Source: a virus. Taken from it: a stretch of 47,971 bases of DNA. This document shows, piece by piece, positions 4,229 to 29,483 of this stretch. The notes under the pieces were generated by a model, which was not told the DNA's origin, did no database searches, and was given only the letters and a program-made list of their open reading frames with translations. The stretch lies in the IMG/VR virus record IMGVR_UViG_3300036787_000035, positions 1-47,971 of that record. One strand, 5' to 3'. A program made the position numbers and the translations under genes. The number at the start of each line of letters is the position of its first letter. The stretch's first letter is position 1.

Positions 4229-4489
4229 TCAAATTACTTTCCGCAACTGTTGAATGCGCTTCGCGATGTTCCGATAACTCACACCTTCTTTGCGTAGCTG
4301 TCTGATCTGATGGCGCTCGCGTAGCTTTTGAACCTGATCGCCGTTGTGCAAAATCACAATCTCAGGGCGTTGCTCTTTGAGTAGTGCGAGCGCATCTTCG
4401 AGCCTGTTCTCAAGCACTAGCACGCTGCGGAACGCATACATAAAGCGATCTTCCCAATTCATCTCGTCTAGCGGGTTGGGGGTTGCCAT
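4229..4489 (-). CDS. Small HTH-like protein (86 aa)
   Basis: The product is 86 residues. The first half is acidic (EMNWEDRFMYAFRSVLVLEN). The C-terminal third is basic and reads like a recombinase-type helix-turn-helix (QIRQLRKEGVSYRNIAKRIQ). The ATG at 4489 has no Shine-Dalgarno sequence but lies exactly where transcription from the promoter at 4497-4526 should begin, so the mRNA is probably leaderless. It is divergent from the AlpA-like and Fis-like regulator genes, a usual place for a regulator. A role as DNA-binding regulator is inference. A short orphan protein with no DNA role cannot be excluded. Confidence 0.6.
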   Translation of the reverse strand: MATPNPLDEMNWEDRFMYAFRSVLVLENRLEDALALLKEQRPEIVILHNGDQVQKLRERHQIRQLRKEGVSYRNIAKRIQQLRKVI

Positions 4490-4573: not shown

Positions 4574-4579
4574 TACAAT
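4574..4579 (+). promoter_or_regulatory. Possible -10 box for the AlpA-like gene
   Basis: TACAAT is followed by 7 bases and then the ATG at 4587, the same -10 to start distance as at the other leaderless genes here. No good -35 box is visible upstream, so this is tentative and would need an activator. Confidence 0.35.
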
Positions 4580-4586
4580 GGAGTGT

Positions 4587-4778
4587 ATGAACCTTCCTGA
4601 AGTTGGTTTTGTGAGATTGCCCCAAATACTCGCCGTCATCCCCGTCTGCCGTGCAACCTGGTGGGCGGGCGTCAAAAGTGGCCGCTTCCCGGCCGGCCGG
4701 CTGCTCAGCCCGCGTATTCGGGTTTGGAGCGTTGAGAGCATACGGGCGCTGATCGCTGAGATCGGGGGCGCGGAGTGA
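4587..4778 (+). CDS. AlpA-like DNA-binding protein (63 aa)
   Basis: The protein has the AlpA/excisionase winged-helix pattern: VGFVRLPQILAVIPVCRATW, then WAGVKSGRFP, then a basic segment and VESIRALIAEI. In canonical members the helix-turn-helix reads S-x-S-T-x-Y/W and is followed by x-G-x-F-P, which is matched here. The ATG at 4587 gives the usual AlpA N-terminus; an ATG at 4578 adds three residues. The stop overlaps the start of the Fis-like gene (GTGA), so the two are coupled. AlpA proteins regulate phage genes or excision, and with no integrase in sight a transcriptional role is more likely. It is a candidate ligand of the TTACTAGTAA operators. Confidence 0.75.
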   Translation: MNLPEVGFVRLPQILAVIPVCRATWWAGVKSGRFPAGRLLSPRIRVWSVESIRALIAEIGGAE

Positions 4779-5062
4779 CGTGCGATGTGCGGCCATCAGT
4801 GCGCTGCTCATGCGGTCTAAATCAGTTTGTTCGAGCCTTCTGTGTACGATGCCGGCGGCCACTCCCGAAGCCGATCCTTGAACTTGGCGACACACTGCCA
4901 ACGATGGCAGAGCTTGAGATGCGACTGATCCATGAGGCCGTACGTCGATGCGACGGCGATAAGCGCCAAGCAGCCAAGCTGATCCAGATTGGAAGGGGAA
5001 CCCTCTATCGCAAGCTCAGGATACCGCGAAGCAAGGGAACGATTGCTTCTAAAAGAATTTGA
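4775..5062 (+). CDS. Fis-type HTH regulator with N-terminal zinc ribbon (95 aa)
   Basis: It starts at a GTG that overlaps the AlpA-like stop codon. Residues 10-30 contain paired cysteines (CSCG and CVRC) that probably bind zinc. The C-terminal half is a Fis-type helix-turn-helix: MAELEMRLIHEAVRRCDGDK then RQAAKLIQIGRGTLYRKLR, the DNA-binding module found at the end of NtrC-type activators. No AAA+ or receiver domain is present, so it acts alone. Its stop lies 9 bases before the first operator-bearing promoter, so it could control the early cassettes either way. The fusion of a zinc ribbon to a Fis domain is seen in other phage small regulators. Confidence 0.75.
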   Translation: MTCDVRPSVRCSCGLNQFVRAFCVRCRRPLPKPILELGDTLPTMAELEMRLIHEAVRRCDGDKRQAAKLIQIGRGTLYRKLRIPRSKGTIASKRI

Positions 5063-5071
5063 AAATAACTC

Positions 5072-5100
5072 TTGACATCTTACTAGTAACTTGGTAATAT
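5072..5100 (+). promoter_or_regulatory. Promoter P1 with TTACTAGTAA operator
   Basis: TTGACA (5072-5077), a 17-base spacer and TAATAT (5095-5100). The spacer holds the perfect palindrome TTACTAGTAA (5080-5089). An A-rich stretch (GAAAATAA) precedes the -35 box. The next ATG (5107) is 7 bases past the -10 box, giving a leaderless mRNA. Confidence 0.85.
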
Positions 5101-5106
5101 CTCTTT

Positions 5107-5502
5107 ATGGAAAACAAATTCAAGATCTTCGGCTTCACTGATGAGGTTACAAACTGCGATTGTTGCGGTAAGACTGGGCTCAAGGGAACCTTCGCCGTTG
5201 AGCTTCTCTCATCTGGTGAGATCCTTCATTACGGCTCGGTATGCGTTACCCGCAACACTGGCATCGCTCACCCGAAGACGGCGGCTGATGAGTACCGCGC
5301 CGAACGCACCAGGGCGGCTCAAGCAATCCTTCGCCAGTCCCCAGAGTACCGCGCCCAGGAAGCGAAGTTTGCTCAGCGCAACGCACTGCCGGCGATGGGC
5401 TTCCCGAAGGCTTACGAATTCGTAAAGGCCGAATGTCTGGCGCTTGACGCCGTTCGCGTTCGCCTGCAGGCCGAATATAAATTAGATTCATTATTATGTT
5501 GA
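5107..5502 (+). CDS. Hypothetical zinc-finger-like phage protein (131 aa)
   Basis: The N-terminus holds a CDCCGK motif (about residues 17-22), followed by a short beta region ending in YGSVCVTR. This pattern recurs in many phage proteins of unknown function that probably bind one zinc. The middle is an arginine- and glutamate-rich helix (about residues 60-95). There is no Shine-Dalgarno sequence; the ATG coincides with the predicted transcription start of P1. The stop codon TGA (5500-5502) lies inside the -35 box of the next promoter, so the gene forms a self-contained cassette. It is likely made early in infection, repressible through the operator. Confidence 0.8.
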   Translation: MENKFKIFGFTDEVTNCDCCGKTGLKGTFAVELLSSGEILHYGSVCVTRNTGIAHPKTAADEYRAERTRAAQAILRQSPEYRAQEAKFAQRNALPAMGFPKAYEFVKAECLALDAVRVRLQAEYKLDSLLC

Positions 5503-5527
5503 CAGCTTACTAGTAACTTGCTAATCT
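5499..5527 (+). promoter_or_regulatory. Promoter P2 with TTACTAGTAA operator
   Basis: TTGACA (5499-5504), 17-base spacer with the exact palindrome TTACTAGTAA (5507-5516), and TAATCT (5522-5527). Transcription should start near 5534, 23 bases before the ATG at 5557. The -35 box contains the stop codon of the upstream gene. Confidence 0.85.
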
Positions 5528-5664
5528 GTATCTGCAGTCGAGAAGATACCCCAAAAATGACAGTTACGAACTTCAACCCGAACGCTCAGCCTACCAAGCT
5601 CGCGAACGCCACGAAAGCATTTTGCTGTATCCTCTCGACTGCATATATAGATTACCAAGTTACT
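5511..5664. repeat. Inverted copy of promoter P2 region (arms 5511-5549 and 5627-5664)
   Basis: The right arm is the reverse complement of the left arm over about 39 bases with four or five mismatches. It carries the operator half-site, spacer end and -10 box TAATCT facing the opposite way, plus the leader up to GATAC. The arms are separated by about 77 bases. The right arm lacks a clean -35 box, so it is more likely a rearrangement scar than a working promoter. Confidence 0.75.
5528..5597 (+). repeat. 70-bp direct repeat, copy 1 (copy 2 at 5800-5869)
   Basis: The two copies differ at one base. Copy 1 covers the leader and first codons of the gene at 5557; copy 2 covers the last codons of that same gene and the first codons of the next. 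The same DNA is thus untranslated leader in one place and coding sequence in the other. Confidence 0.85.
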
Positions 5665-5832
5665 GGGGATCTCTTTCAAGAGATCACTCGTTACCTCAAC
5701 ACGCCGGAACTCACCTGCGAAGAGATGGCCGCCAGGATCAACGCCGCGAATAACTACGCCTTCGATGCTGCAACGTTGCGGCGGATCGCTGAGGCTCTTG
5801 TATCTGCAGTCGAGAGGATACCCCAAAAATGA
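5557..5832 (+). CDS. Chimeric small hypothetical protein (91 aa)
   Basis: The product begins MTVTNFNPNAQPT, identical to the next gene, and then KLANATKA, also shared but after a deletion. From about residue 22 it diverges: the segment across 5627-5664 is the inverted promoter copy read as protein, followed by an acidic helical body (LTCEEMAARINAANNYAFDA) and the end VSAVERIPQK. It appears to be a fusion of the start of the downstream gene with the body of another gene. GAGAAGATACC upstream gives only a weak ribosome site. The stop overlaps the next start (ATGA). Function unknown. Confidence 0.6.
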   Translation: MTVTNFNPNAQPTKLANATKAFCCILSTAYIDYQVTGDLFQEITRYLNTPELTCEEMAARINAANNYAFDAATLRRIAEALVSAVERIPQK

Positions 5833-6077
5833 CAGTTACGAACTTCAACCCGAACGCTCAGCCTACCAACCTTCTCACCGTTGCCGAATGGCGCAATCTC
5901 GCGAACGCCACGAAAGCGGCATCATGGAAGGCGGCCGTCAACGCCTGGGCTCGCCGGCGCGGGGGCGCTCTGGTGTTGCGGGCAGACGGTAGCCTTCGCG
6001 TGATCACTCTCCGCGGCTCGAAGCTCTCGCAGAGCACTTACAAGCCTGGCGCGTGGGCGTGGGAGGTAGCAGCATGA
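5829..6077 (+). CDS. Small hypothetical protein, paralogous N-terminus (82 aa)
   Basis: It starts MTVTNFNPNAQPT like its upstream neighbour and continues with LTVAEWRNLANATKA, then a basic W- and R-containing segment (NAWARRRGGALVLRADG) ending in AWAWEVAA. GAGAGG lies about 11 bases upstream of the ATG, and the start overlaps the previous stop by four bases. The stop overlaps the next start (ATGA at 6074), so the three genes 5557-6247 form one unit under P2. I recognise no family. Confidence 0.7.
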   Translation: MTVTNFNPNAQPTNLLTVAEWRNLANATKAASWKAAVNAWARRRGGALVLRADGSLRVITLRGSKLSQSTYKPGAWAWEVAA

Positions 6078-6247
6078 CCGCGAAGATCCTCTCTGATAGC
6101 TTGGCGATCCTGCTCGCGTCCCCCAGTAGCAAAGCCCGCCGCGCCGCGATGCACCTGGTATGCGCCCAGGTTGTAAAGGCCGCCCCAATCCCTTCGCCGG
6201 AAGAATGCGACGCGGAAACGCTCGAAATAAATGAAAATAACTCTTGA
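6074..6247 (+). CDS. Small hypothetical protein (57 aa)
   Basis: The ATG at 6074 is chosen because GGAGG stands seven bases upstream and the start overlaps the previous stop. The sequence is a short helix (ILSDSLAILLASPSSKARRA) followed by a possible second helix and an acidic tail (IPSPEECDAETLEINENNS). The DNA coding the tail (6188-6222) recurs at 6436-6470 in another frame. The stop TGA (6245-6247) lies inside the -35 box of P3. Function unknown. Confidence 0.65.
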   Translation: MTAKILSDSLAILLASPSSKARRAAMHLVCAQVVKAAPIPSPEECDAETLEINENNS

Positions 6248-6272
6248 CAGCTTACTAGTAACTTGGTAATAT
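6244..6272 (+). promoter_or_regulatory. Promoter P3 with TTACTAGTAA operator
   Basis: TTGACA (6244-6249), 17-base spacer with the palindrome at 6252-6261, and TAATAT (6267-6272). The 44 bases 6232-6275 equal 5060-5103 (P1 and its upstream A-rich element) except for one base, so P1 and P3 are recent duplicates. Confidence 0.85.
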
Positions 6273-6290
6273 CTCAACTTGGAGGATTCC

Positions 6291-6464
6291 ATGTACATTT
6301 TGTTTATCCCTGCCGCACTCAGCTTGCTCACCATCTTAGCCCTGACGATCAAAGATCAGATCGGCTCCAAACCCGATCTGCCGATGCTTGATCAGATCGA
6401 GCTGGCGCGCGTCACAGCAGCCCTGGGCCGCCCTGATCCCTTCGCCGGAAGAATGCGACGCTGA
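6291..6464 (+). CDS. Small membrane protein (57 aa)
   Basis: The ATG at 6291 follows GGAGG (6281-6285). Residues 2-20 form one hydrophobic membrane helix (YILFIPAALSLLTILALTI), followed by a short cytoplasmic or periplasmic tail (KDQIGSKPDLPMLDQIELAR). The last residues PDPFAGRMRR come from a DNA segment (6436-6470) that is 33/35 identical to 6188-6222, where it is read in another frame. This points to a frameshift or overprinting at this gene's 3' end. Expressed from P3 and closed by the terminator at 6535. Function unknown. Confidence 0.65.
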   Translation: MYILFIPAALSLLTILALTIKDQIGSKPDLPMLDQIELARVTAALGRPDPFAGRMRR

Positions 6465-6534
6465 GACGCTTCCCCCGTTCGCTCGCATCCAATCGCGCTC
6501 TTATGCACATCTAACCGGCTCCCCGAGTGCCGCC

Positions 6535-6560
6535 AGCCCCCTCAACTGAGGGGGCTTTTT
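6535..6560 (+). terminator. Strong rho-independent terminator
   Basis: GCCCCCTC (6536-6543), tetraloop AACT and GAGGGGGC (6548-6555) followed by TTTTT. It ends the plus-strand cassette cluster and separates it from the convergent terminase small subunit gene. The stretch 6465-6534 before it holds no gene I can support. Confidence 0.9.
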
Positions 6561-6596
6561 AGTGCATCGCTCCTACTTAGGGACTCGAAGCCGGCA

Positions 6597-7496
6597 CTAA
6601 GTGCCCTCGATTGTCTTACTTGGCAACGCCGCCGGCGATAATACCCCCGCAGATACCCCCAAAGTCGCAGCTCGAGCCCTCCGCAACCGCCCCCGCTCAA
6701 TGATGCCGGCAAGCTCATCGTCTGAGAGATCCTTAGCGCTCCCGCCCACCACCAGAGCCGCAGCCAGCTTTACATCGGCGCTGCTCTTGTTCTGCATCCC
6801 CAGGTAATCGGCGAGCGACTTGAGCGCTTCGGGCTGATCGTGCATCTTGATCTCAATCCCATCCTTCGTCTGCTTTACGCCAGCGAAGAGAGCCGCGGCC
6901 GAACGGCTCAGCTTGCGGGAGTCGGCGAGCCAGGTCCGCGGCAAGCCTTCGCCCTTGCACTTAGGGCAGTCAGGGTTAGGCTCGCGAGTCGGCGAGTACC
7001 CTAGGCCACCCTCGAAGGCCGGCGGCAGCAACATGCAAGTCAGAGCTTCGTTGAGCGCGGTAGCGTATTCGTGTTCCATCCATTCCCGTTTGTTATCAAT
7101 GCCCCAGCAATGCCGACAGCAGCCGATGCGGGTATGGATCAGATCTCTCGGGTCCGCGCTGGCGATCAACATCCATCGATTCAAAACCCATTCGGGGCTC
7201 AGGCTCGCGACACGGGCCAGGTCCGCCCGCTCAACCTCTATAGCTTCCTGTATCTCAACGTTCTGTAACAGACGCGAAGCGCCTTGAGCCGCTCCCTGCT
7301 CGCTGTAACCTGCCAATACGTAAGCCTTTGCACCATCAGTAATGCGAGCCTGATGGAAGACGAAACGTTTTTGACGATCACTGAGCATATCCCTGGCTTC
7401 CCACATTACCGCGCCGGGCATCCACAATGCAAACGGGCGCTTAGAATTACCCCGAATGGCTAGCGGTGTAATTACGGGGTAGTTATTGGGTGTCAT
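6597..7496 (-). CDS. terS: Terminase small subunit
   Basis: Residues about 38-95 match the Terminase_2 type DNA-binding region: LSDRQKRFVFHQARITDGAK then AYVLAGYSEQGAAQGASRLL and an IQEAIEVERADLA helix. The middle has cysteine pairs (CCRHCWG and CPKCKGEG), suggesting a zinc site that splits the protein. The C-terminus holds DDELAGIIERGRLRRARAA. It recognises phage DNA for packaging together with the large subunit at 44833. The two genes are far apart, with the fibre gene between them on the circle, although they are usually adjacent. The first 30 residues are not typical; a start at a later methionine near LSDRQ is possible. Confidence 0.8.
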   Translation of the reverse strand: MTPNNYPVITPLAIRGNSKRPFALWMPGAVMWEARDMLSDRQKRFVFHQARITDGAKAYVLAGYSEQGAAQGASRLLQNVEIQEAIEVERADLARVASLSPEWVLNRWMLIASADPRDLIHTRIGCCRHCWGIDNKREWMEHEYATALNEALTCMLLPPAFEGGLGYSPTREPNPDCPKCKGEGLPRTWLADSRKLSRSAAALFAGVKQTKDGIEIKMHDQPEALKSLADYLGMQNKSSADVKLAAALVVGGSAKDLSDDELAGIIERGRLRRARAATLGVSAGVLSPAALPSKTIEGT

Positions 7497-7715
7497 TGAT
7501 TCTATTGGAGTTACACCCTCTTTTCTCTATTACCCTTATATATATCAAATCAACACATAGAGAGAAATAAGGAGAAATAGAAATAGTACATACTAATAGG
7601 TAGGAATCATTACATACATAGATATGACGACATTTGATTTCGACAAACTTCGTTCCTAGAGCGCTACGGAAGTGCCTTCGGGGTGAGGGCGACGGGGTAA
7701 TCCTACATACGGTAT
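7497..7715. promoter_or_regulatory. AT-rich intergenic region, candidate origin or control region
   Basis: The part 7500-7640 is by far the most AT-rich stretch seen. It contains TATATATAT near 7540, repeated GAAATA units at about 7566-7590, two ACATAC units, and complementary segments (TCTCTAT with ATAGAGA; CCTTAT with ATAAGG) that can form nested hairpins. It separates the minus-strand terS from a plus-strand gene. I cannot tell whether it is a replication origin, a packaging site or only promoters. Confidence 0.4.
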
Positions 7716-7744
7716 TTGACAGATAATAATTCCCAGCGTAATGT
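7716..7744 (+). promoter_or_regulatory. Operator-free leaderless promoter
   Basis: TTGACA (7716-7721), a 17-base spacer without the TTACTAGTAA palindrome, and TAATGT (7739-7744). The ATG at 7752 is eight bases past the -10 box, so the mRNA should be leaderless. It should escape whatever binds the operators of P1-P5. Confidence 0.75.
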
Positions 7745-7751
7745 TTGACTC

Positions 7752-8429
7752 ATGGAAATAATTACGCGGCAGCAAGCAATAACGTTGGGGCTCAAAAAGT
7801 ATTTTACAGGTGAGCCCTGTAAAAATGGACACATCGCTGAGCGTTATTTGCAGAGCAGCACTTGTGAGATGTGCATCCGGGGATCAGCCGTAGCATACTC
7901 ATCTTCTGAGAGTGACGCTAACCGAGCGCGGCGGCTTGAGTTACAGGAAGAGCGGTTAGCTATCGAGCGCGAAAAGAGTGATCAGCGGCGACAGCGCATC
8001 GAACTCGCCAAAGCTCACGCTGAACTGCAAGAGCGTAAACTAGCTCTCCGCCCGAAGCCTAAGCGTCAAGATCTGGCCCCCATATGCATCGTTCTCCACT
8101 GGGACGACCGTGAGTATTTCAAGGCCAGGATGCTCGCTCTAGCAATGGAAATAGACCCTTCGATTCAAATGCCGGATCTTCTGACCAATAAATTACCAGT
8201 GACTCGCGGCCTTGAGCGGGATGCTTATTTCTTCAAAACGTTCAAGGCTAATCACCCCGAACTATTTGATCTGCAAAACTCTCTTGGGCGTGATCGCGAT
8301 GCCACGGGGACTGACGCCGACGATCTACACTTTCTCTCGGTGCAAGCTCGCATACGCGCTGAGGAAGCCGAAACCGCTCGGCATCTCGACGAAGACGACA
8401 ACGGCCGCCCCGAGAGGTTGGACGCATGA
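7752..8429 (+). CDS. Zinc-finger protein with coiled coil (225 aa)
   Basis: The first 45 residues have the pattern LGLKKYFTGEPCKNGH and CEMC (Cys23, His27, Cys38, Cys41), a zinc module that begins many phage HNH and endonuclease-VII-like proteins. It is followed here not by a nuclease but by a highly charged coiled coil (about residues 50-120, rich in R, E, Q and L) and a domain with IVLHWDDREYFKARMLALAM. The C-terminus is acidic. No catalytic motif is visible, so nucleic-acid binding is inference. Leaderless start from the promoter at 7716; the stop overlaps a 16-codon reading frame (ATGA). Confidence 0.7.
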   Translation: MEIITRQQAITLGLKKYFTGEPCKNGHIAERYLQSSTCEMCIRGSAVAYSSSESDANRARRLELQEERLAIEREKSDQRRQRIELAKAHAELQERKLALRPKPKRQDLAPICIVLHWDDREYFKARMLALAMEIDPSIQMPDLLTNKLPVTRGLERDAYFFKTFKANHPELFDLQNSLGRDRDATGTDADDLHFLSVQARIRAEEAETARHLDEDDNGRPERLDA

Positions 8430-8475
8430 TCAGGCTAGTCATCATCGTTTGCTTCGCGAAAGCTGACCGCTGGTG
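8426..8475 (+). CDS. Tiny hydrophobic reading frame (16 codons), possible coupling peptide
   Basis: The ATG overlaps the previous stop (ATGA) and the stop overlaps the GTG of the next gene (GTGA), giving an unbroken chain of coupled starts. The peptide would be MIRLVIIVCFAKADRW. It may serve only to carry ribosomes to the 8473 gene. Weak evidence. Confidence 0.25.
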
Positions 8476-8670
8476 ATCCCGCCCGTCAAATACTATCGCC
8501 GCGGCCGGCGCTGGGCGAAGGTGAGCCAGATCGCCGGTCCCGTAGATCAGAGCCCGTATAAATACGCCGTCGCCCTGGGCTTCAAACGTCAGGCACTCGG
8601 GGGCGACGTTGAGCTAACGATCCTTCGCCGGGACGCTGAGATAATGGCAAAGAATTGGATTGACAGATAA
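8473..8670 (+). CDS. Small basic hypothetical protein (65 aa)
   Basis: It starts at a GTG coupled to the preceding tiny frame. The protein is basic (VKYYRRGRRWAKVSQIAG) with a second half rich in beta-type residues (VALGFKRQALGGDVELTILR). I recognise no family; size and charge would fit nucleic-acid binding, but that is a guess. Its stop codon TAA (8668-8670) lies inside the operator of promoter P4. Confidence 0.55.
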   Translation: MIPPVKYYRRGRRWAKVSQIAGPVDQSPYKYAVALGFKRQALGGDVELTILRRDAEIMAKNWIDR

Positions 8671-8688
8671 CTAGTAACCTGGTAGATT
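8660..8688 (+). promoter_or_regulatory. Promoter P4 with operator variant TAACTAGTAA
   Basis: TTGACA (8660-8665), 17-base spacer with TAACTAGTAA (8668-8677, one mismatch to the consensus palindrome) and TAGATT (8683-8688). The ATG at 8695 is seven bases past the -10 box, again leaderless. Confidence 0.8.
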
Positions 8689-8694
8689 AGAGGA

Positions 8695-9423
8695 ATGATG
8701 AATATCAAGAGCCTGCTCAAAGCCAAAGCCCCCATCGTAGCGATCCCCGTAGAAGGGCACGCGCCGGCCTGCATTGACGGTAAGCGCCTGCGAGCCTGGG
8801 CGAAGGGCGTAACCATCCAATCGGTGAGGATCGTTGAGAGTGAGCACGAAATCGAAGGAATGGGTTTAGAGGAGGGGCATCCGCCCTTCGGCGTAAAGCT
8901 GCCGGTTGGTACCCGTCTGCTTGAAGTGGTGGGGCAGGCCGGCCACGTAAAGACGCGGGCGCGTTTCCTGATCATTGCCCGCGGCGCTGCGATCAAGACT
9001 CTCAGCGCTTGGAGTGACAAAGAGAGCGAGCGGCTTCAAAAGAGATCGCTTACCGGCGCGTTGACGACGGATCAAAGGAAGGCGCTCAAGCGGGCGAAGT
9101 TTGATGAAGACGGAGAGGGAATGATCCCCGTAATGGTTGCCGGCAAACTGGTAACAGATCCGAAGACGGAGCGGATGGGCGTACCCGTAAGCATCCACGA
9201 GTTTCCTCTCCTGAGCTTTGCGCTCATCCGCTTCGGGACCGTCGCTGATGATAACGTCCGTTTCACCATAACCGAGATCAACACCGGGCAACGCGGCGGC
9301 GCTGGCGATACCCCCAAGCAAGCGCTCTTAGACGCTCGCCAGAAGGCCGCCAAGCTCACGCCCGAACGGATCGGCAGTATTACCGCGAAATGTCTGGCTC
9401 CACTGGTAGAGCCTGATGTTTGA
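8695..9423 (+). CDS. Hypothetical protein (242 aa)
   Basis: The start at 8695 fits transcription from P4; a second ATG follows at 8698. The protein is soluble and mixed alpha/beta. Segments include VAIPVEGHAPACIDGKRLRA near the start, a basic stretch near residue 110-140 (LTTDQRKALKRAKFDEDGEG), and a C-terminal part with FTITEINTGQRGGAGDTPKQ. I recognise no domain and see no signal peptide or membrane segment. It is the largest product of the operator-controlled set. Its stop TGA (9421-9423) lies inside the -35 box of P5. Confidence 0.75.
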   Translation: MMNIKSLLKAKAPIVAIPVEGHAPACIDGKRLRAWAKGVTIQSVRIVESEHEIEGMGLEEGHPPFGVKLPVGTRLLEVVGQAGHVKTRARFLIIARGAAIKTLSAWSDKESERLQKRSLTGALTTDQRKALKRAKFDEDGEGMIPVMVAGKLVTDPKTERMGVPVSIHEFPLLSFALIRFGTVADDNVRFTITEINTGQRGGAGDTPKQALLDARQKAAKLTPERIGSITAKCLAPLVEPDV

Positions 9424-9448
9424 CAGCTTACTAGTAAATTGATACTCT
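9420..9448 (+). promoter_or_regulatory. Promoter P5 with TTACTAGTAA operator
   Basis: TTGACA (9420-9425), 17-base spacer with the exact palindrome at 9428-9437 and TACTCT (9443-9448). Transcription should start near 9455, giving a 20-base leader with AGGAGG before the ATG at 9475. Confidence 0.8.
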
Positions 9449-9474
9449 GTATCAGCGCTCAGGAGGCGCTCACA

Positions 9475-10107
9475 ATGATGCTCAAAACCACGCTCGCTCT
9501 ACTTCACAAGGCAAACGCCTGCTCTGCTGGATTACAAACTCTGACAGCTTCACTCGGCTCCAAGTGGACTGACGATAAAGAAATCAGTCTAAAACGCATC
9601 CTCAAATCCAACGGCTTAGATCATGCGATCTGGGCAATGCGAGCGACTACGGAGCCCTGTAAGCGAGCCATCGTTTTACTCTCTGTTGATTTTGCAATGG
9701 AAGTTCTGGGTAATTTTGAGAAGGCGTTTCCTGACGACAAGCGCCCTCGCGAAGCGCTGCAAGCCGCGAGCGATTTTATGGACGGAAAAATTACGCTTGC
9801 TCAGTTAGAAGATAAAAAGTCGGCGGCGCGCTCGGCGGCGCGCTCGGCGGCGTACTCGGCGGCGTACTCGGCGGCGGACTCGGCGGCGGACTCGGCGTAC
9901 TGGGCGGCGGACTCGGCGAACTCGGCGGTGGACTCGGTGGACTCGGTGGACTCGGCGGTGGACTCGGCGGCGTACTCGGCGCGCTTGGCGGCGCGCTCGG
10001 CGGCGCGCTCGGCGGCGGACTCGGCGGCGGACTCGGCGTACTGGGCGGCGTACTCGGCGGCTATTGAACGTCAGAAGGCATTATTTCTAAAGCGGGTGAG
10101 CAAATGA
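9475..10107 (+). CDS. Repeat protein with S-A-A tail, immunity-protein-like fold (210 aa)
   Basis: The ATG at 9475 follows AGGAGG (9461-9466) at good spacing; a second ATG follows directly. Residues 1-110 are helical and include KRAIVLLSVDFAMEVLGNFE and PDDKRPREALQAASDFMDGK. From memory this resembles phage proteins annotated as putative immunity protein, in which a helix ending near PxDxRPR-A is followed by long alanine-rich repeats. The tail (about residues 116-195) is a run of xSAA units with R, Y, D and W at the variable place. The DNA of this tail is a simple repeat and may vary in length by slippage. Stop overlaps the next start (ATGA). Confidence 0.65.
   Translation: MMLKTTLALLHKANACSAGLQTLTASLGSKWTDDKEISLKRILKSNGLDHAIWAMRATTEPCKRAIVLLSVDFAMEVLGNFEKAFPDDKRPREALQAASDFMDGKITLAQLEDKKSAARSAARSAAYSAAYSAADSAADSAYWAADSANSAVDSVDSVDSAVDSAAYSARLAARSAARSAADSAADSAYWAAYSAAIERQKALFLKRVSK
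9820..10065 (+). repeat. Degenerate TCGGCGGCG triplet-codon repeat
   Basis: About 27 copies of a 6-9 base unit (CGGCG plus TACT, GACT or CGCT) encode the S-A-A repeats of the 9475 gene. There are no conserved spacers, so this is not a CRISPR array. Confidence 0.85.
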
Positions 10108-10190
10108 TCTCAATCGCTTTCACCGTCGGAGTAGTGGCCGGCATCGCCGTAGGGCTCGCAGTTTCGCTCTTCATCAAGAGGATGGCCTAA
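10104..10190 (+). CDS. Single-pass membrane microprotein (28 aa)
   Basis: The ATG overlaps the previous stop (ATGA) and the TAA overlaps the next ATG (TAATG), so it is held between two coupled genes. The peptide is almost one membrane helix (ISIAFTVGVVAGIAVGLAV) with a basic end (FIKRMA). Its composition and tight fit support a real gene. Function unknown; small membrane proteins of this type occur in many phage early regions. Confidence 0.6.
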   Translation: MISIAFTVGVVAGIAVGLAVSLFIKRMA

Positions 10191-10375
10191 TGGCTCACAT
10201 CTCCCTTAGCGGCGCTTACTGGTGCGAGAATTGCCAGAGTGTTATAGACTCTGCGATTTCCTGCCCCGCTTGCGCTTCACCGCATAGTATCATCCCACTA
10301 GTAACCTGTCTGAATAAGGGGGCTCAAATTGAAGTACACGCCGCATTGGGATCTCACCACGATTCCCGACTCTGA
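10190..10375 (+). CDS. Small zinc-ribbon protein (61 aa)
   Basis: Residues 12-30 hold two cysteine pairs (WCENCQS and CPACAS) typical of a zinc ribbon. The remainder is short and may be only a tail, since the next gene starts inside it at 10329. Coupled to the preceding microprotein by TAATG. A small nucleic-acid- or protein-binding adaptor is likely. Confidence 0.6.
   Translation: MAHISLSGAYWCENCQSVIDSAISCPACASPHSIIPLVTCLNKGAQIEVHAALGSHHDSRL
10287..10315 (+). promoter_or_regulatory. Degenerate copy of the operator-promoter (P6)
   Basis: CCACTAGTAA (10295-10304) sits in the same relation to weak boxes GTATCA (10287-10292) and CTGAAT (10310-10315) as in P1-P5. The eight bases ACTAGTAA and the flank ACCTG match P4. 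It is probably decayed or weak, but the operator core may still be bound. Confidence 0.45.
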
Positions 10376-10538
10376 GTTTCGCAGCGAGCACGGGCGGCGC
10401 AACCGCGCCAAAGCGCCGAAGGCTACCAACGTCAAGCTCAAGCCGTGCGCTAAGTGCGGGACGCCACTCACAGCAACCCAACGCCGCAAGCCGTGCTCTA
10501 AGTGCGGCTACGTGCATCCGAGAAAGGCGGCTAGTTAG
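10329..10538 (+). CDS. Small zinc-ribbon protein (69 aa)
   Basis: It starts at a TTG preceded by AAGGGGGC at suitable spacing. The N-terminus (YTPHWDLTTIPDSEFRSEHG) and the C-terminal pair of CxxC motifs (CAKCGTP and CSKCGYVHP) are typical of a phage small protein family whose function is not known. It overlaps the 3' end of the convergent primase gene by eight bases, so no terminator fits between them. Confidence 0.7.
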   Translation: MKYTPHWDLTTIPDSEFRSEHGRRNRAKAPKATNVKLKPCAKCGTPLTATQRRKPCSKCGYVHPRKAAS

Positions 10539-13005: not shown

Positions 13006-13326
13006 TTACAGATCCATTACGCTGCGAAGGGCCTTTTGCTTGAGGGGTTCGGGAAGCCACTTCTTTACGGCGTAACCGTCGTGTGCGACAAGACTTTGGT
13101 AAATTATTTCCGTAATTTCGTCCCGAATCGCGGCTTTCATAATGACACGCCGCGCATCCTTCATATCGCCCAGGTAGCGGGATACTAATCCCTCAGAGCA
13201 GCCGGCAGCGTTGGCGATTACCTGGCGCGTAATCAGTGACCAGCCGCCGGGCTGCCTGGCGCTCTCGATTGCTGCTCTCAAAATAAGCTCGCGTCTGATG
13301 GTTGGTTTGAATCGCTTGTTGCTCAT
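13006..13326 (-). CDS. TetR-type HTH protein (106 aa)
   Basis: Residues 10-62 fit the TetR N-terminal DNA-binding domain: RRELILRAAIESARQPGGWS, then LITRQVIANAAGCSEGLVSR (the helix-turn-helix) and YLGDMKDARRVIMKAAI. The C-terminal ligand and dimer domain of full TetR proteins (about 200 residues) is missing, so it is a short phage form. It starts four bases before the methylase stop (ATGA). TetR proteins bind palindromes, making this one candidate for the TTACTAGTAA operators in the early region. Confidence 0.7.
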   Translation of the reverse strand: MSNKRFKPTIRRELILRAAIESARQPGGWSLITRQVIANAAGCSEGLVSRYLGDMKDARRVIMKAAIRDEITEIIYQSLVAHDGYAVKKWLPEPLKQKALRSVMDL

Positions 13327-17391: not shown

Positions 17392-18518
17392 CTGTACATG
17401 CGTTTCTTCCCCCTTCTGGCGCGGCGGCCTGGTCTAAGTGTGCCCAATGGCCGAAAATGAATAAGGAGTTTTCCCAAGACGATACCCCCGAGAGCGTTGA
17501 AGGGACCGCGGCCCATTGGGTTGGTACTGAGATGTTGGCAGGCCGGTTGTACTCTGAGGGCTCAAGCGCCCCCAACGGTGTAATCATCACCGGCGAGATG
17601 CTCGACGGCGCGGAACTCATCGCGGAGACGGTTGCACGCCGGATCAATCCAATCACGCCGGGGATGCTTCATATCGAAGAGTGGGTTAGCATTCCCGAGA
17701 TCCATGAGGAATGCGGCGGCACTCCTGACGTTTGGACGTTCGATCTCGCTCGAATGCACCTTGAGGTATTCGACTACAAGTATGGTCACGGGTTTGTAGA
17801 TGAGTATTTCAACAAGCAAGGTTTGCTCTATGCGTCCGGAATTATCGAGACGTTGAAGCCTGCTCTACTGGGAGATCCTGCCAACATCTCAGTGAGCTTT
17901 ACCGTAATCCAACCCCGCTGCTATCACCGCGGCGAGCCCGTCCGAACGCACAATTACATATGGGGCGAAGTCACTGCCCGCGCCCATATGATCGCGATGC
18001 AGGCCGCGGCAACCCAGGCGTATAGCCCTAAGCCGATGGCTTCCACAAATCCCGAGTGCTGCCATTGTCCCGGCCGCCATGCGTGCGAAGCTCTGCAGAG
18101 AGCCGCATACAGTGACGCGGAATTTGCAACGGCTCGCCAACCTCATAACCTCACGCCCCAGGCTGCCGGCCTTGAACTCAGGATGCTCGAAAGGGCATAC
18201 GAGAGGCTAGGGGCTCGCGTTGAAGGACTTAGGGCGTTGACGCTCGCCAACCTGAGAGCGGGCGCGTCAGTGCCCTATTACGTCGCAGAGCCGGGCAAGG
18301 GCCGCCGCCAGTGGAATATTCCCATTGATCAACTCATAACTATCGGTCAAATGCTGGGAAAAAACCTTAGCAAACCCGGTGTTGTCTCGCCAGCTCAGGC
18401 GGATCGATTAGGACTTGACGAAGCCGTCAGTAATAATTACTCTTCAATTATTCCTGGCGCTGTAAAACTGGTGCCACAGAATAATACTGCTGCACGCAGA
18501 GTATTTGGGAAGGGTTGA
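17388..18518 (+). CDS. DUF2800 family RecB/Cas4-like PD-(D/E)XK nuclease
   Basis: The protein (376 residues) opens with LPPSGAAAWSKCAQWPKMNK, the typical start. It has the nuclease core CGGTPDVW and LEVFDYKYGHGFVDEY (D-x-K, about residues 120-135), then the QxxxY helix (NKQGLLYASG). Near 225-235 follows a cysteine cluster CCHCPGRHAC which, with an earlier Cys, may hold an iron-sulfur cluster as in Cas4/AddB. Such enzymes resect DNA ends for recombination. Coupled to the gene before it by ATGA and followed by the SSB-like gene. Confidence 0.85.
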   Translation: MTVHAFLPPSGAAAWSKCAQWPKMNKEFSQDDTPESVEGTAAHWVGTEMLAGRLYSEGSSAPNGVIITGEMLDGAELIAETVARRINPITPGMLHIEEWVSIPEIHEECGGTPDVWTFDLARMHLEVFDYKYGHGFVDEYFNKQGLLYASGIIETLKPALLGDPANISVSFTVIQPRCYHRGEPVRTHNYIWGEVTARAHMIAMQAAATQAYSPKPMASTNPECCHCPGRHACEALQRAAYSDAEFATARQPHNLTPQAAGLELRMLERAYERLGARVEGLRALTLANLRAGASVPYYVAEPGKGRRQWNIPIDQLITIGQMLGKNLSKPGVVSPAQADRLGLDEAVSNNYSSIIPGAVKLVPQNNTAARRVFGKG

Positions 18519-19827: not shown

Positions 19828-20667
19828 ATGGCAGTACGGTTTGCAGTTGAGCATAAGCGAACCTCCGAGTATCGCTTCTACCCTGAAGACATTACGATCA
19901 AGCCCGATCTCAACGGTCGTCACGAAAAGCCTGAGATTGAATGGCTCATTACCGATATCCTGGCGCGCGGGCAGCATACGCCGGTTGTCATCCGCAACGA
20001 TGGCGGCGCGGCCGTCCTGGTTGCCGGCTTCTCTCGCTGGCGTGCGATCAGCGAGATCAACAAGCGCGGGCTCGCGCCGGTCAAACTGCAGGTTCGTTGT
20101 ACCTACGTGCAATGCAGCGAAGGCGAAGCGTTTCTGATCAACATCTCAGAGAATCGCTTTCGCAATCCCGCAACTCCCCTTGACGACGCTCACAACATCA
20201 AGCGGCTTCTCAACGTCTACGCGATGACGGATGAGCAGATCGCCGGCGTCTACTTCCCGACCGCGAAGACTGAGGGCGAACTCAAGGCCGCCCACAAGTT
20301 CGTAAAGGACCGCATCGCGCTTATCTCTCTGTCAGAGGAAGCCGCCGAAGCGGTGAAATCCGGCCGGGTCAAAGAGTCGGCGGCCGTTGCAATCGCGAAG
20401 CTCAGCAAAGCTCAGCAGCATGAGGTTTTGAAAAAAGAGGGCACTATCGAGCGGAGCGACGTAAAGAAACCGGGCGCGGTCAAAGTTCCGAAGCCGGTTG
20501 CTCGCGATCCCGAACTCATCCGGCGCGTTACTGCCGCCCTCGAAGACGTGGCCGGGATGCTCGCTGATGAAGAGTACGGGGAGTTTATCGAAGTTGATCG
20601 CAAGCTCTTGCTAGATCTTTATCTCTACGTTGAAGAGATCAAACCGAAGGCCGCGGCCGCTGCGTAA
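19828..20667 (+). CDS. ParB/Spo0J nuclease-domain protein
   Basis: The N-terminal half has the ParB CTPase/nuclease fold markers: QHTPVVIRNDGGAAVLVAGF then SRWRAISEI (the G-x-R-R-x-x-A box), and INISENRFRNPATPLDDA (E-N-x-x-R). The middle (LSEEAAEAVKSGRVKESAAV) resembles the helical part of ParB. The C-terminus is basic then acidic with no clear dimer domain. GAGG precedes the ATG. Phage copies sit in replication operons and may act in partition, gene control or nicking. The stop TAA overlaps the polymerase ATG. Confidence 0.85.
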   Translation: MAVRFAVEHKRTSEYRFYPEDITIKPDLNGRHEKPEIEWLITDILARGQHTPVVIRNDGGAAVLVAGFSRWRAISEINKRGLAPVKLQVRCTYVQCSEGEAFLINISENRFRNPATPLDDAHNIKRLLNVYAMTDEQIAGVYFPTAKTEGELKAAHKFVKDRIALISLSEEAAEAVKSGRVKESAAVAIAKLSKAQQHEVLKKEGTIERSDVKKPGAVKVPKPVARDPELIRRVTAALEDVAGMLADEEYGEFIEVDRKLLLDLYLYVEEIKPKAAAAA

Positions 20668-22661
20668 TGATCCCCGCTCCACCATCAGGTAAGCCGGTAG
20701 CATTTTACGACACAGAATGTTTTCCTAACTTTTGGCTTCTCAAGTTCCGTCCTCAGGGCGGCGAATGCTTTACGTTCGCGCTGAGGGCGGGCGAGAGGTT
20801 AGAGCCCGCGGCGGTTGCGAGCATCACCACGCTATTCCAGATCTTTACAACCGTGAGCTTCAACGGCAATTACTACGATGTACCGATGATCGCCGCGGCG
20901 CTCTCGGGCTATACCCCAGATCAACTCAAATGGCTCAATGATCAAATCATTGTCCAGAAGCTAAAGCCCTGGGAGTTAGGGCTCCCCGAGTGGCGGCCGG
21001 CTGATCACATCGATGTGATGGAAGTAGCGCCAGGCGCGGGCAGCCAAAAGCAGTACGCAGGTCGAATCCACTGCAAGACGATGCGAGATCTTCCCTACTC
21101 GCCGGATCAATACCTCACGCCTGCGGAGATCGCCGAAGTAGACGACTATTGCGGAAATGATCTCTCAGTCCTAGAGGGGCTATTCGATGCACTCGCGCCC
21201 CAACTCCACCAGCGCCAGGAGTTGAGCAAGCGCTACGGGATTGATCTGCGAAGTAAGTCAGATGCTCAGCTTGCCGAAGCCGTTCTAAAGCGCCGCTGTG
21301 AGCAGGCTCTAGGTCAGAAGATTTATAAGCCTGAGATTGACTGGAATCTGGTCTTCAAATACGAGCCGCCATCCTTCCTCAAATTTCAGACGGCACCTCT
21401 CATGCAGGCGTTCTCCCTGGTCAGAGAGGCCGTATTCCGGCTTGGCCCGAGTGGCTCCGTCGTCATGCCCGCCCAGCTAGACGGACTTGAGATCCAAATC
21501 GGCTCGTCGCGCTACCGGCTCGGGATCGGCGGCCTGCACTCCTCCGAGAAGCGCGTGGCGTACCGAAGCGACGAAAACGCTGTACTCAGGGATTCGGATG
21601 TTGCCAGCTACTATCCCAGTCTGATCTTGAACTCCGGAAAATATCCGAAGGCTCTCGGCCCCGCGTTCCTGCATGAGTATGCAGCGATCAAAGATGAGCG
21701 TCTGAAGGCGAAGGCTCTACAGAAAACACTTACTAAAGGAACTCCCGAATACACGAAGGCTGAGGTAGAGAACGAGGGCGGCAAGATTATGATCAACGGC
21801 GTTTTCGGGAAGACTGGGAGCCCGTTCTCCATCCTTTTCGCCCCTGAGATGCTCATTCAAACCACCATCACCGGGCAACTTGCGCTCATGATGCTGATTG
21901 AGTGGCATGAATCGAACGGCATCCCTGTTGTGTCTGCGAATACTGACGGGTTTGTGGCATTTTGCCCGCGCCATCTGCTCGCTTCGAGCGATCGGCTCAT
22001 CGAAGAGTGGGAGCGGAGCACGGGTTTGGAGATGGAAAGCAATACTTACAAGGCCATTTATTCCAAAGACGTAAATAATTACTTTGCAGTGAAGATCGAC
22101 GGGAAGGTAAAGCGCAAAGGGGAATACTCAAAGGCCGGCCTGGTCGAAAAGAAGAATCCCGATGTGGAGATCTGCTCAGATGCCGTGGCCGAATATCTCA
22201 GCAAGGGGACGCCGATCCTTTATACGCTCGCCGCGAGCCGGGATATCCGCAAATTTGTGACAGTCCGCAAGGTTGCCGGCGGCGCTGTGAAGCTCTGGGG
22301 CGAGGGACCGCTCAAGGGCACAAAGATACGCGATATGACGGCCACTCTGCAGGCTAACGGATGGGTGAAGAGCGGCCGTAAATGGCAGCGGGCGGGCGTG
22401 CTGGCGGATGCGGGGAGCGCTTACGCATCTTGCTTCACCCCGCAACGGCCCGAGTATATGGGCAAAGTGATCAGATTCTACTACTCGACATCCGCGCCCG
22501 GCTCAATCATCTACAACACTAACGGCAACACCGTAAGCCTCAGCTACGGCGCTAAGCCCTGCCTGACTCTGCCGGACTCACTGCCGGATGACATTGACTA
22601 CGCCTGGTATCTCGACAATTGCCACGCGATATTGAGGGACATTGGCTATGCAACTATATAA
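20667..22661 (+). CDS. Family B DNA polymerase with 3'-5' exonuclease
   Basis: At 664 residues this is a compact phage polymerase. Exonuclease motifs are visible: FYDTECFPNFW (Asp15, Glu17), VSFNGNYYDVPMI and YCGNDLSVLEGLF. Polymerase motif A is SDVASYYPSLI (near residue 314), motif B is KIMINGVFGKTGS (near 374) and motif C is VVSANTDGFVAF (near 416), where the usual D-T-D is N-T-D. This variant is, from memory, shared by related phage enzymes. The C-terminal 150 residues look family-specific. ATG overlaps the ParB-like stop (TAATG); the methylase fragment starts inside its 3' end. Confidence 0.92.
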   Translation: MIPAPPSGKPVAFYDTECFPNFWLLKFRPQGGECFTFALRAGERLEPAAVASITTLFQIFTTVSFNGNYYDVPMIAAALSGYTPDQLKWLNDQIIVQKLKPWELGLPEWRPADHIDVMEVAPGAGSQKQYAGRIHCKTMRDLPYSPDQYLTPAEIAEVDDYCGNDLSVLEGLFDALAPQLHQRQELSKRYGIDLRSKSDAQLAEAVLKRRCEQALGQKIYKPEIDWNLVFKYEPPSFLKFQTAPLMQAFSLVREAVFRLGPSGSVVMPAQLDGLEIQIGSSRYRLGIGGLHSSEKRVAYRSDENAVLRDSDVASYYPSLILNSGKYPKALGPAFLHEYAAIKDERLKAKALQKTLTKGTPEYTKAEVENEGGKIMINGVFGKTGSPFSILFAPEMLIQTTITGQLALMMLIEWHESNGIPVVSANTDGFVAFCPRHLLASSDRLIEEWERSTGLEMESNTYKAIYSKDVNNYFAVKIDGKVKRKGEYSKAGLVEKKNPDVEICSDAVAEYLSKGTPILYTLAASRDIRKFVTVRKVAGGAVKLWGEGPLKGTKIRDMTATLQANGWVKSGRKWQRAGVLADAGSAYASCFTPQRPEYMGKVIRFYYSTSAPGSIIYNTNGNTVSLSYGAKPCLTLPDSLPDDIDYAWYLDNCHAILRDIGYATI

Positions 22662-22890
22662 CTGCGATAACGTGATGGCTCTCAGTTGCCTTGTAGCGAG
22701 CGAGAGTGTACAGCTAACAGTTACGTCCCCTCCGTATGACAACCTCCGCGAATACAAGGGATTTTCTTGGAATTTTGAAGCTCTCGCCCGCGAGTTATAC
22801 CGGGTGACTAAGCCGGGCGGCGTTGTTGTATGGGTTGTCGCCGACGCCACGGTTGACGGCAGTGAGACGGGTAGTTCGTTCAAACAGTGA
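22648..22890 (+). pseudogene. Truncated DNA methyltransferase (N4/N6 type), 80 aa
   Basis: The protein starts LYNCDNVMALSC and has the catalytic motif TSPPYDNLREYKGF, then ALARELYRVTKPGGVVVWVV and DATVDGSETGSSFKQ, ending in TGA. This is the first third of a standard phage N4/N6 methylase; intact members run on from the same G-S-E-T-G-x-S-F-x-Q segment for another 150-200 residues with the SAM-binding part. The downstream DNA encodes something else, so the loss is a deletion, not one frameshift. It overlaps the polymerase end by 14 bases. Probably inactive. Confidence 0.75.
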
Positions 22891-27772: not shown

Positions 27773-28548
27773 AGAGGCGGGCTCGTTTGCGTCCCCACGG
27801 CTTCGCTAGTGTGGACGTGAGTTTTGAGGCTCTTGCCGCCGGCAATTACATCGCCGGTAGTTGTAAGCTCCCCGCTCATCGTAGCATTGCCGCCGGTTGA
27901 CGCCAACGCGCCATCTAGGTTGATCTCGGGGGCTGCCAGAGTAATTGTGTCGGGGGCGGTAATGCTCACGTCGCCGCCGCTCTGAGTAAGCGCCCCCTCA
28001 ACAGTTACAGCGCCGCCTAGCGTGATTGTGGGAGCCGTGAGCGTGATCGCAGTCGGGGAAACGATGGTTATCCCGTCAGTTCCAAAGCGAACGTATTGCA
28101 CGGGCACGGCGTTGAGCATTCCGCCCAGATACATGCCGTCCGAGAAATCATACTGCCGGTAGCTGCCTGGGTTGGCCTGAGCCTTCGTGCTCTTCACCTT
28201 GCTTATATCGCGACTGGCGAAGACGGCCACGCCGATATCGCCGGGCTGAGGGTCCAAGATCACGGCGTTAGTTCCGCCCTGCATTCGCAGATAGGGGAGT
28301 CCGTAAATCGTAACGTGCGGCGTCGGGTTGGCGGGCACTGAGCCGTCAATTTGATTCACCAGCGGCGTTACATCCACGAAGCCAACCGGCGAGAGATCAC
28401 CCGCGTTTGTGCAAGCCTCTATTCGTACCAGCGTCCCGGTTTGCATTTTGGCGAGGGCAGCTTGGATAGCAAAAACGATGTTGTTGTACTCTCCCCAGGT
28501 GCTAGAGGGCCAAAGAGTACCGAGACTAATTGGAGATTGCGAAGCCAC
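27769..28548 (-). CDS. Baseplate spike, Gp138/gpV-like
   Basis: Residues 30-130 are an OB-fold region (GTLVRIEACTNAGDLSPVGF; VILDPQPGDIGVAVFASRDI). From about 165 on come short repeated beta units (PTAITLTAPTITLGGAVTVE; DVSITAPDTITLAAPEINLD), which build a triple-stranded needle. The C-terminus has HVHTSEAV, a His-rich tip that in related spikes binds a metal. It pierces the host outer membrane. The start lies 23 bases inside the hub gene. Confidence 0.9.
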   Translation of the reverse strand: MASQSPISLGTLWPSSTWGEYNNIVFAIQAALAKMQTGTLVRIEACTNAGDLSPVGFVDVTPLVNQIDGSVPANPTPHVTIYGLPYLRMQGGTNAVILDPQPGDIGVAVFASRDISKVKSTKAQANPGSYRQYDFSDGMYLGGMLNAVPVQYVRFGTDGITIVSPTAITLTAPTITLGGAVTVEGALTQSGGDVSITAPDTITLAAPEINLDGALASTGGNATMSGELTTTGDVIAGGKSLKTHVHTSEAVGTQTSPPL

Positions 28549-29453: not shown

Positions 29454-29483
29454 TTGACAGTACAGTCAACAATTCTCCATAAT
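29454..29483 (+). promoter_or_regulatory. Leaderless promoter with palindromic site
   Basis: TTGACA (29454-29459), an 18-base spacer and CATAAT (29478-29483); the ATG at 29491 is eight bases further. A 14/16 palindrome TTGACAGTACAGTCAA (29454-29469) covers the -35 box and could bind a dimeric repressor. Confidence 0.65.

What the first reader, a model, noticed from the sequence alone, without database searches (positions are those of the whole stretch)
5072..10315. A dispersed family of five near-identical promoters with a palindromic operator in the spacer
TTGACA, a 17-base spacer and a -10 box recur at 5072, 5499, 6244, 8660 and 9420, each with TTACTAGTAA (one mismatch at 8668) at the same place in the spacer; a sixth, decayed copy lies at 10287. 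All face the same way and precede small early genes. A protein bound there would block polymerase at all five, so this looks like a phage regulon with one master repressor acting at many single-gene promoters. No classic CI-type repressor is visible. Candidates in the genome are the short TetR-like protein (13006-13326), the AlpA-like and Fis-like proteins (4587-5062) and the small HTH protein (4229-4489); a host repressor is also possible.
Basis: partly seen in the sequence, partly recalled or inferred. Interest (0 to 1): 0.75.

Follow-up and report, generated by a model that had tools for sequence, protein, structure and literature searches.

The report
Shared repressor-site promoters in a phage
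A phage and its relatives switch on many small early genes from near-identical promoters that all carry the same mirror-image DNA site between their two promoter boxes, so one still unidentified protein could probably shut them all at once; sister phages use the same layout with a different mirror-image site.

Summary
The window is a complete, circularly permuted phage genome (136-bp end overlap). Five TTGACA-N17-TAnnnT promoters carry TTACTAGTAA (one TAACTAGTAA) at one fixed register; 0.35 palindrome matches are expected by chance. The "sixth copy" at 10287 is not above chance.

The family is real and conserved. It recurs as 24 distinct sites in eight phages, always with TTGACA (once GTGACA) as the left arm, and in none of 27 other records. 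In relatives the palindrome widens to 18 bp (CACRYTACnnGTARTGTG). Sister phages with the same replication genes lack it but have at least 21 promoters with a different palindrome (GATAAATWATTTATC) in the same place; a third operator (TTGAC-N6-GTCAA) lies over the -35 of replication promoters.

Best reading: a dispersed operator regulon in which one protein occludes host sigma70-type early promoters, often leaderless ones. No integrase is present in the window or near-complete relatives, so early-gene shut-off fits better than lysogeny. The repressor is unidentified. Dispersed phage operators are known, so this is a variant, not a new kind.

The parts
5072..5100 (+). promoter-operator 1: TTGACA TCTTACTAGTAACTTGG TAATAT; ATG at 5107, 6 nt after the -10 (predicted leaderless)
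5499..5527 (+). promoter-operator 2: TTGACA GCTTACTAGTAACTTGC TAATCT; ATG at 5557
6244..6272 (+). promoter-operator 3: TTGACA GCTTACTAGTAACTTGG TAATAT; SD and ATG at 6291
8660..8688 (+). promoter-operator 4: TTGACA GATAACTAGTAACCTGG TAGATT; ATG at 8695, 6 nt after the -10 (predicted leaderless)
9420..9448 (+). promoter-operator 5: TTGACA GCTTACTAGTAAATTGA TACTCT; SD and ATG at 9475
10287..10315 (+). claimed decayed sixth copy; not above chance
7716..7744 (+). sigma70-type promoter of the same region WITHOUT the palindrome (internal control); ATG at 7752, 7 nt after the -10
5107..5502 (+). early gene of site 1, 131 aa, unknown function
5557..5832 (+). early gene of site 2, 91 aa; its start region is duplicated at 5829 (74 bp, 97% identical)
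6291..6464 (+). early gene of site 3, 57 aa
8695..9423 (+). early gene of site 4, 242 aa; 45% identical relative lies under a site of the same family in G007
9475..10107 (+). early gene of site 5, 210 aa, Imm5-like with Ala-Ser repeats
10329..10538 (+). zinc-ribbon protein, 69 aa; candidate regulator or conserved regulon member; relatives lie downstream of an operator-promoter in G009, G020, G021, G047, G050
19828..20667 (+). ParB/Noc/KorB-like protein, 279 aa; candidate repressor
13006..13326 (-). TetR-like protein; in all sister phages, so disfavoured for this operator
4578..4778 (+). AlpA-like protein (Pfam below cut-off); shared only with G007
4775..5062 (+). Fis-type HTH_8 protein; found in no relative searched
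4229..4489 (-). small HTH_38-like protein (below cut-off) with its own promoter at 4526- and no operator; found in no relative searched
18415..18443 (+). replication-module promoter with the second operator type (TTGACGAAGCCGTCA over the -35)

Best explanation
The element is a dispersed operator regulon. Each copy is a strong host sigma70-type early promoter whose -35/-10 spacer is filled by a palindrome; in several copies the ATG sits at the predicted transcription start (leaderless). A dimeric protein bound there would cover the DNA between the -35 and -10 boxes and exclude RNA polymerase, so a handful of small early genes fire together on entry and are shut together. In this phage and its near-complete relatives, which lack an integrase, the likeliest role is timed early-gene shut-off by a phage protein rather than lysogeny. 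Shown: the sites, their register, their conservation, their absence elsewhere, and the parallel family with another palindrome. Inferred: protein binding, repression, timing. Unresolved: which protein; I rank the ParB/KorB-like protein (about 0.30), the zinc-ribbon protein (about 0.20), a host protein (about 0.15), AlpA-like (about 0.10), TetR-like (about 0.08), other (about 0.17).
For: Palindrome confined to these promoters and more conserved than any flank. Same cassette in G007 (8 copies) and G003. Generic dyad in 24 distinct sites over eight phages, none in 27 other records. TTGACA is the left arm in 23 of 24, and 23 of 24 have an ORF start within 90 nt on that strand, so the sites are directional promoters and not simply protein-binding palindromes. 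In G047, G021 and G020 the palindrome grows to 18 bp even at the cost of the -10 box, as expected of an operator. Sister phages keep the layout with another palindrome. Promoters without the palindrome exist. Spacing is a normal 17 bp, so no activator is needed to fix the promoter. No integrase in the window, G020, G021, G047 or G048.
Against: No expression or binding data. No protein is shown to bind. Correlations between operator type and genes reflect one clade (support 100/100), hence one event. Some near-identity within a genome could come from recent duplication: sites 1 and 3 share 43 of 44 bp. In the window the outer CA..TG arms coincide with the -35 and an extended -10, so only the 10-bp core is independent of promoter function there. 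In G020, G021 and G047 the -10 is poor (GAAGCT, GAGGAT), so some copies may be weak promoters.
Confidence: 0.72

Rival explanations
1. The repressor is the phage's ParB/KorB-like protein (19828-20667), made from the replication operon and closing the early promoters once replication genes are on, as KorB does on plasmid RK2.
For: Genuine ParB/Noc/KorB family: HTH_ParB over the Pfam cut-off, PDB profile hits to Noc and ParB at 5e-8, fold hits to ParB, Noc and KorB including the KorB-KorA complex. Among phages of this backbone it is in all near-complete operator-bearing ones and in none of seven operator-free ones.
Against: Also in seven otherwise unrelated phages without the operator (G043-G046, G051, G053, G054). 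Not found in G009, which has one site (partial record). One clade, so one event. In the type II phages a different ParB-like protein is missing from two of six. No dyad is seen before its own operon.
Confidence: 0.3
2. The regulator is the 69-aa zinc-ribbon protein (10329-10538), an early product that represses its own regulon.
For: In every operator-bearing record long enough to judge except partial G007, and in no operator-free record apart from G048, which has only a degenerate site. In G009, G020, G021, G047 and G050 it lies downstream of an operator-promoter; G009 is an otherwise unrelated phage that shares just this gene and one site.
Against: No known DNA-binding domain; zinc-ribbon Pfam matches all below cut-off. 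A monomeric zinc ribbon does not predict a palindrome. It may simply be a conserved target of the regulon. Not found in G007 (partial record).
Confidence: 0.2
3. A host repressor (for example a LexA-type or other global regulator) recognises the palindrome, tying phage early genes to host state.
For: An unrelated integrase-bearing phage (G009) has one site of the same kind, as expected of phages sharing a host factor. No single phage gene is proven.
Against: The promoter-operator pattern is in none of 84,980 species genomes, though that pattern demands TTGACA and the host may be unsampled. Palindromes differ between phages with the same replication genes.
Confidence: 0.15
4. The palindrome is not an operator: the promoter cassette was copied around the early region and the spacer sequence is inherited baggage or a promoter-strength feature.
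For: Sites 1 and 3 share 43 of 44 bp and other early-region segments are duplicated.
Against: Core conserved between phages whose proteins are 40-74% identical, while flanks are near random. Symmetry is kept and extended when sequence changes (CACATTACTAGCAATGTG, CACACTACGAGTAGTGTG). Sister phages have a different palindrome at the same place.
Confidence: 0.08
5. Lysogeny-type master repressor: these are immunity operators as in P1 or phiC31.
For: G007, with eight sites, encodes an apparently intact tyrosine integrase.
Against: Window and near-complete relatives have no integrase or serine recombinase. No CI-like gene was seen among the proteins scanned. The ParB-like gene could serve a plasmid-like prophage, but no ParA was seen.
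Confidence: 0.2

Closest known systems
SPbeta MrpR (YopR) and the SPBRE element (PMC10516654)
   Same: One phage protein binds a short conserved element in about ten dispersed phage promoter regions of mostly unknown genes; the element was found in silico long before the protein.
   Different: SPBRE is a 15-bp motif serving lysogeny, bound by a tyrosine-recombinase fold. Here the element sits in the -35/-10 spacer, is palindromic, lies in integrase-free phages, and the protein is unknown.
Cluster A mycobacteriophage immunity repressor and stoperators (PMC9283540, PMC6550527)
   Same: Many near-identical repressor sites spread over one phage genome.
   Different: Stoperators are asymmetric sites at which the repressor also terminates elongation (PMC9283540). 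Here sites are symmetric, inside promoters, and each starts a gene.
P1 C1 operators and phiC31 CIB inverted repeats (from memory, not tested)
   Same: One repressor at many dispersed promoters; CIBs are conserved inverted repeats near early promoters.
   Different: C1 sites are asymmetric; both serve lysogeny. Sequences not compared here.
RK2 plasmid KorB/OB and KorA/OA (PMC11790492)
   Same: A ParB-family repressor and palindromic operators on one replicon; a ParB/KorB-fold protein is a candidate here.
   Different: The OB oligonucleotide TTTTAGCGGCTAAAA is unlike TTACTAGTAA; long-range silencing needs a CTP clamp, not tested here.
MerR-family spacer operators (from memory)
   Same: Palindrome between the -35 and -10 boxes.
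   Different: MerR promoters have overlong (19-20 bp) spacers that need untwisting; all spacers here are 17 bp.

Membership tests
Dispersed phage repressor-operator regulon (SPBRE/CIB/C1 kind) | Near-identical operator at several dispersed promoters of one phage, above chance | tested here: met
   5 sites, 0.35 expected; 24 sites in eight phages
Dispersed phage repressor-operator regulon (SPBRE/CIB/C1 kind) | One phage-encoded protein binds all copies | not testable with these tools
   Needs a binding assay; candidates only from distribution
Dispersed phage repressor-operator regulon (SPBRE/CIB/C1 kind) | Temperate phage; repression keeps lysogeny | tested here: not met
   No integrase/recombinase in window, G020, G021, G047, G048; present only in partial G007 and G009
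MerR-type activated promoter | 19-20 bp spacer | tested here: not met
   17 bp at all sites
KorB/ParB regulon | ParB-family protein encoded | tested here: met
KorB/ParB regulon | Operator resembles parS (TGTTTCACGTGAAACA) or OB (TTTAGCSGCTAAA) | tested here: not met
   Compared by eye: the core TTACTAGTAA shares no such half-site; OB from PMC11790492, parS from memory
KorB/ParB regulon | ParB-like gene and operator always occur together | tested here: inconclusive
   Together within this backbone; gene without operator in seven unrelated phages; site without the gene in partial G009
Stoperator system (Cluster A mycobacteriophages) | Asymmetric sites, mostly outside promoters | tested here: not met
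   Symmetric, all inside promoters
Host LexA regulon | Same site before host genes | not tested
   Host unknown; only the promoter-bound pattern was searched in genomes, none found

The most novel reading that the evidence does not exclude
A CTP-clamp (ParB/KorB-type) or zinc-ribbon protein acts as the common off-switch of virulent-phage early promoters, and related phages swap the whole spacer palindrome together with its reader, so that early-gene control (and perhaps exclusion of co-infecting relatives) is set by an exchangeable operator cassette.
Probability: 0.2. Interest if true: 0.75.

Novelty: new variant of a known kind. Interest (0 to 1): 0.5.

Why it matters
It gives a compact, testable set of promoters (about 38 bp from -35 to a leaderless ATG), a defined operator and only a few candidate readers. 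Lineages with the same replication genes but different palindromes in the same slot offer a natural experiment on how phage operators and their readers change together.

Tried and rejected
Named-phage DNA match: none over the half searched. Promoter pattern in bacterial genomes: none. Host by prophage search: only two distant Novosphingobium relatives (45-47%), not enough to name a host. TetR-like protein as reader: its relatives in marine phages show no such promoter family and it is in all operator-free sister phages. AlpA-like relatives in other viral contigs (L031-L041): no palindrome family, though some contigs are cut near the gene. A divergent repressor gene in G007 next to its first site: no ORF there. 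A 26-bp dyad across -35 and -10: dropped as a firm claim for the window because the outer arms equal the -35 and extended -10; kept as 18 bp in G020, G021 and G047. Single matches of the first pattern scan (L009, L010, L012, L013, L018-L020) have no promoter context; L016, an AT-rich contig, does look promoter-like but was not followed up. Independence of the gene-operator correlation: rejected, one clade. LexA literature term search returned nothing useful; the phiC31 search found no held paper.
Full report
WHAT THE WINDOW IS. Bases 1-136 nearly repeat 47836-47971 (one search lists shared 16-mers; one search shows both ends, with the tail-fibre reading frame open on either side), so the record is a complete, circularly permuted phage genome. 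TerL, sheath and primase relate it to Bcep781-like and other phages at under 60% identity; no named phage matches at DNA level over the half searched. No integrase, serine recombinase or tRNA was found. The host is unknown.

THE OBSERVATION. The palindrome with up to one mismatch occurs only there; 0.35 expected. Of seven strict TTGACA-N17-TANNNT promoters in the genome (0.165 expected), five carry the palindrome and two (7716 +, 4232 -) do not. The sixth copy at 10287 is not above chance.

CONSERVATION. A scan of 2.9 million viral contigs found the cassette in the same phage (L014/G006), in G007 (IMGVR 3300044691_000169, eight copies) and in G003 (one copy). G007's structural proteins are mostly 57-80% identical to the window's, and the genes under its sites are mostly different; three early proteins have relatives in the window: AlpA-like, the site-4 protein (45%) and the 5829 protein (69-70%). 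Information is 1.65 bits per position in the palindrome against 0.28 and 0.39 in the flanks.

VARIANTS SHOW THE OPERATOR. Relatives found through the sheath and ParB-like proteins carry altered sites: G021 TTGACACATTACTAGCAATGTGAGAAGCT, G020 TTGACACGTTGCTAGTAATGTGCGAAGAT, G047 TTGACACACTACGAGTAGTGTGAGAGGAT, G050 TTGACAAGCTACTAGAAGCCTGTTATTCT. Sequence drifts but symmetry stays and even extends to 18 bp, while the -10 decays. A 12-position dyad test finds 24 distinct sites in eight phages (nine records; G049 repeats a G047 site) and none in 27 other records; L231, a further relative of G050, adds three. The left arm is TTGACA in 23 of 24 and GTGACA in one, so the sites are directional promoters.

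A PARALLEL FAMILY. G017, G018, G022, G025, G026 and G028 share primase, helicase and polymerase with the window but have no TTACTAGTAA promoter. They carry at least 21 promoters of the form TTGACR-TA-GATAAATWATTTATC-TATAnT or close variants, again with the palindrome in the spacer. A third palindrome, TTGAC-N6-GTCAA, lies over the -35 of replication-module promoters: 26 copies in the 13 backbone genomes counted that encode the TetR-like protein, where permuted half-sites average about 0.06 per genome, against one copy in 13 other phage genomes, four of which are marine phages that also carry a TetR-like relative (window 18415). Because the TetR-like protein is in all 13 backbone genomes, it is the natural candidate for that site, not for this one (inference).

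WHO READS IT. Profile of every window ORF against relatives: within this backbone, the genes in G020, G021 and G047 and in none of seven operator-free sisters are the ParB-like gene and the zinc-ribbon gene (other hits are antisense or repeats). ParB-like: Pfam HTH_ParB over cut-off, PDB profile hits, a usable model (pLDDT 80) and fold hits to ParB, Noc and KorB. But seven unrelated phages have it without the operator. Zinc-ribbon: found with the site even in the otherwise unrelated G009 and located downstream of an operator-promoter in five relatives, but it has no recognised DNA-binding domain. The replication tree puts window, G020 and G021 in one clade (100/100), so these correlations count as one event. 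AlpA-like is shared only with G007; Fis-like and HTH_38 were found in no relative.

HOW IT MOST LIKELY WORKS. A dimer on the palindrome would cover the spacer and exclude polymerase; a 17-bp spacer argues against the MerR style of activation. Without integrase, shut-off of early genes is likelier than lysogeny. At 5072, 8660, six of eight G007 sites and one G020 site the ATG is 6 nt beyond the -10, which predicts leaderless mRNAs, a known mode in Deinococcus-Thermus and mycobacteria (PMC12340547, PMC3898074).

KNOWN RELATIVES. SPbeta MrpR/SPBRE, stoperators and KorB work alike in using one protein at many dispersed sites. Membership fails on lysogeny, symmetry or operator sequence as listed. 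Verdict: real, ordinary in principle, a new variant in layout and in lineage-specific palindromes; reader unknown.

Noticed in passing
5107, 8695, 7752, 4489 (-); L021 sites: Predicted leaderless genes: ATG 6-7 nt after a TAnnnT -10 box, in the window and in most G007 copies.
   Followed up: partly
18415-18443 and sister phages G016-G028, G020, G021, G048: A second dispersed operator, TTGAC-N6-GTCAA, overlaps the -35 of replication-module promoters and tracks the TetR-like protein within this phage group.
   Followed up: partly
G017 L149-L151, G018 L163-L164, G022 L152-L154, G025 L155-L156, G026 L157-L159, G028 L160-L162: At least 21 promoters with a GATAAATWATTTATC-like spacer palindrome; all six phages also encode a 52-aa HTH-like protein (G017 28226-28384 -), a possible reader.
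   Followed up: partly
9800-10080: The site-5 gene has an in-frame 12-bp tandem repeat (CGGCGGCGxxCT) encoding Ala-Ser-rich repeats on an Imm5-like protein.
   Followed up: no
5527-5600 and 5799-5872; 6178-6222 and 6426-6470: Recent duplications in the early region, 97% and 91% identical, the first covering a gene start.
   Followed up: no
L143/L168 (G009), site at record position 29460 (-): An otherwise unrelated integrase-bearing phage has one operator-promoter followed by a 137-aa gene and a zinc-ribbon gene, suggesting horizontal transfer of the cassette or a shared host reader.
   Followed up: partly
L016:2676 (-): An AT-rich contig has TTGACATATTACTAGTAACACATTATAAT with a second ACTAGTAAC downstream, a promoter-like match in an apparently unrelated genome.
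   Followed up: no
22642-22890: An 82-aa N6/N4 methylase fragment 73% identical to part of a 255-aa methylase in G021.
   Followed up: no
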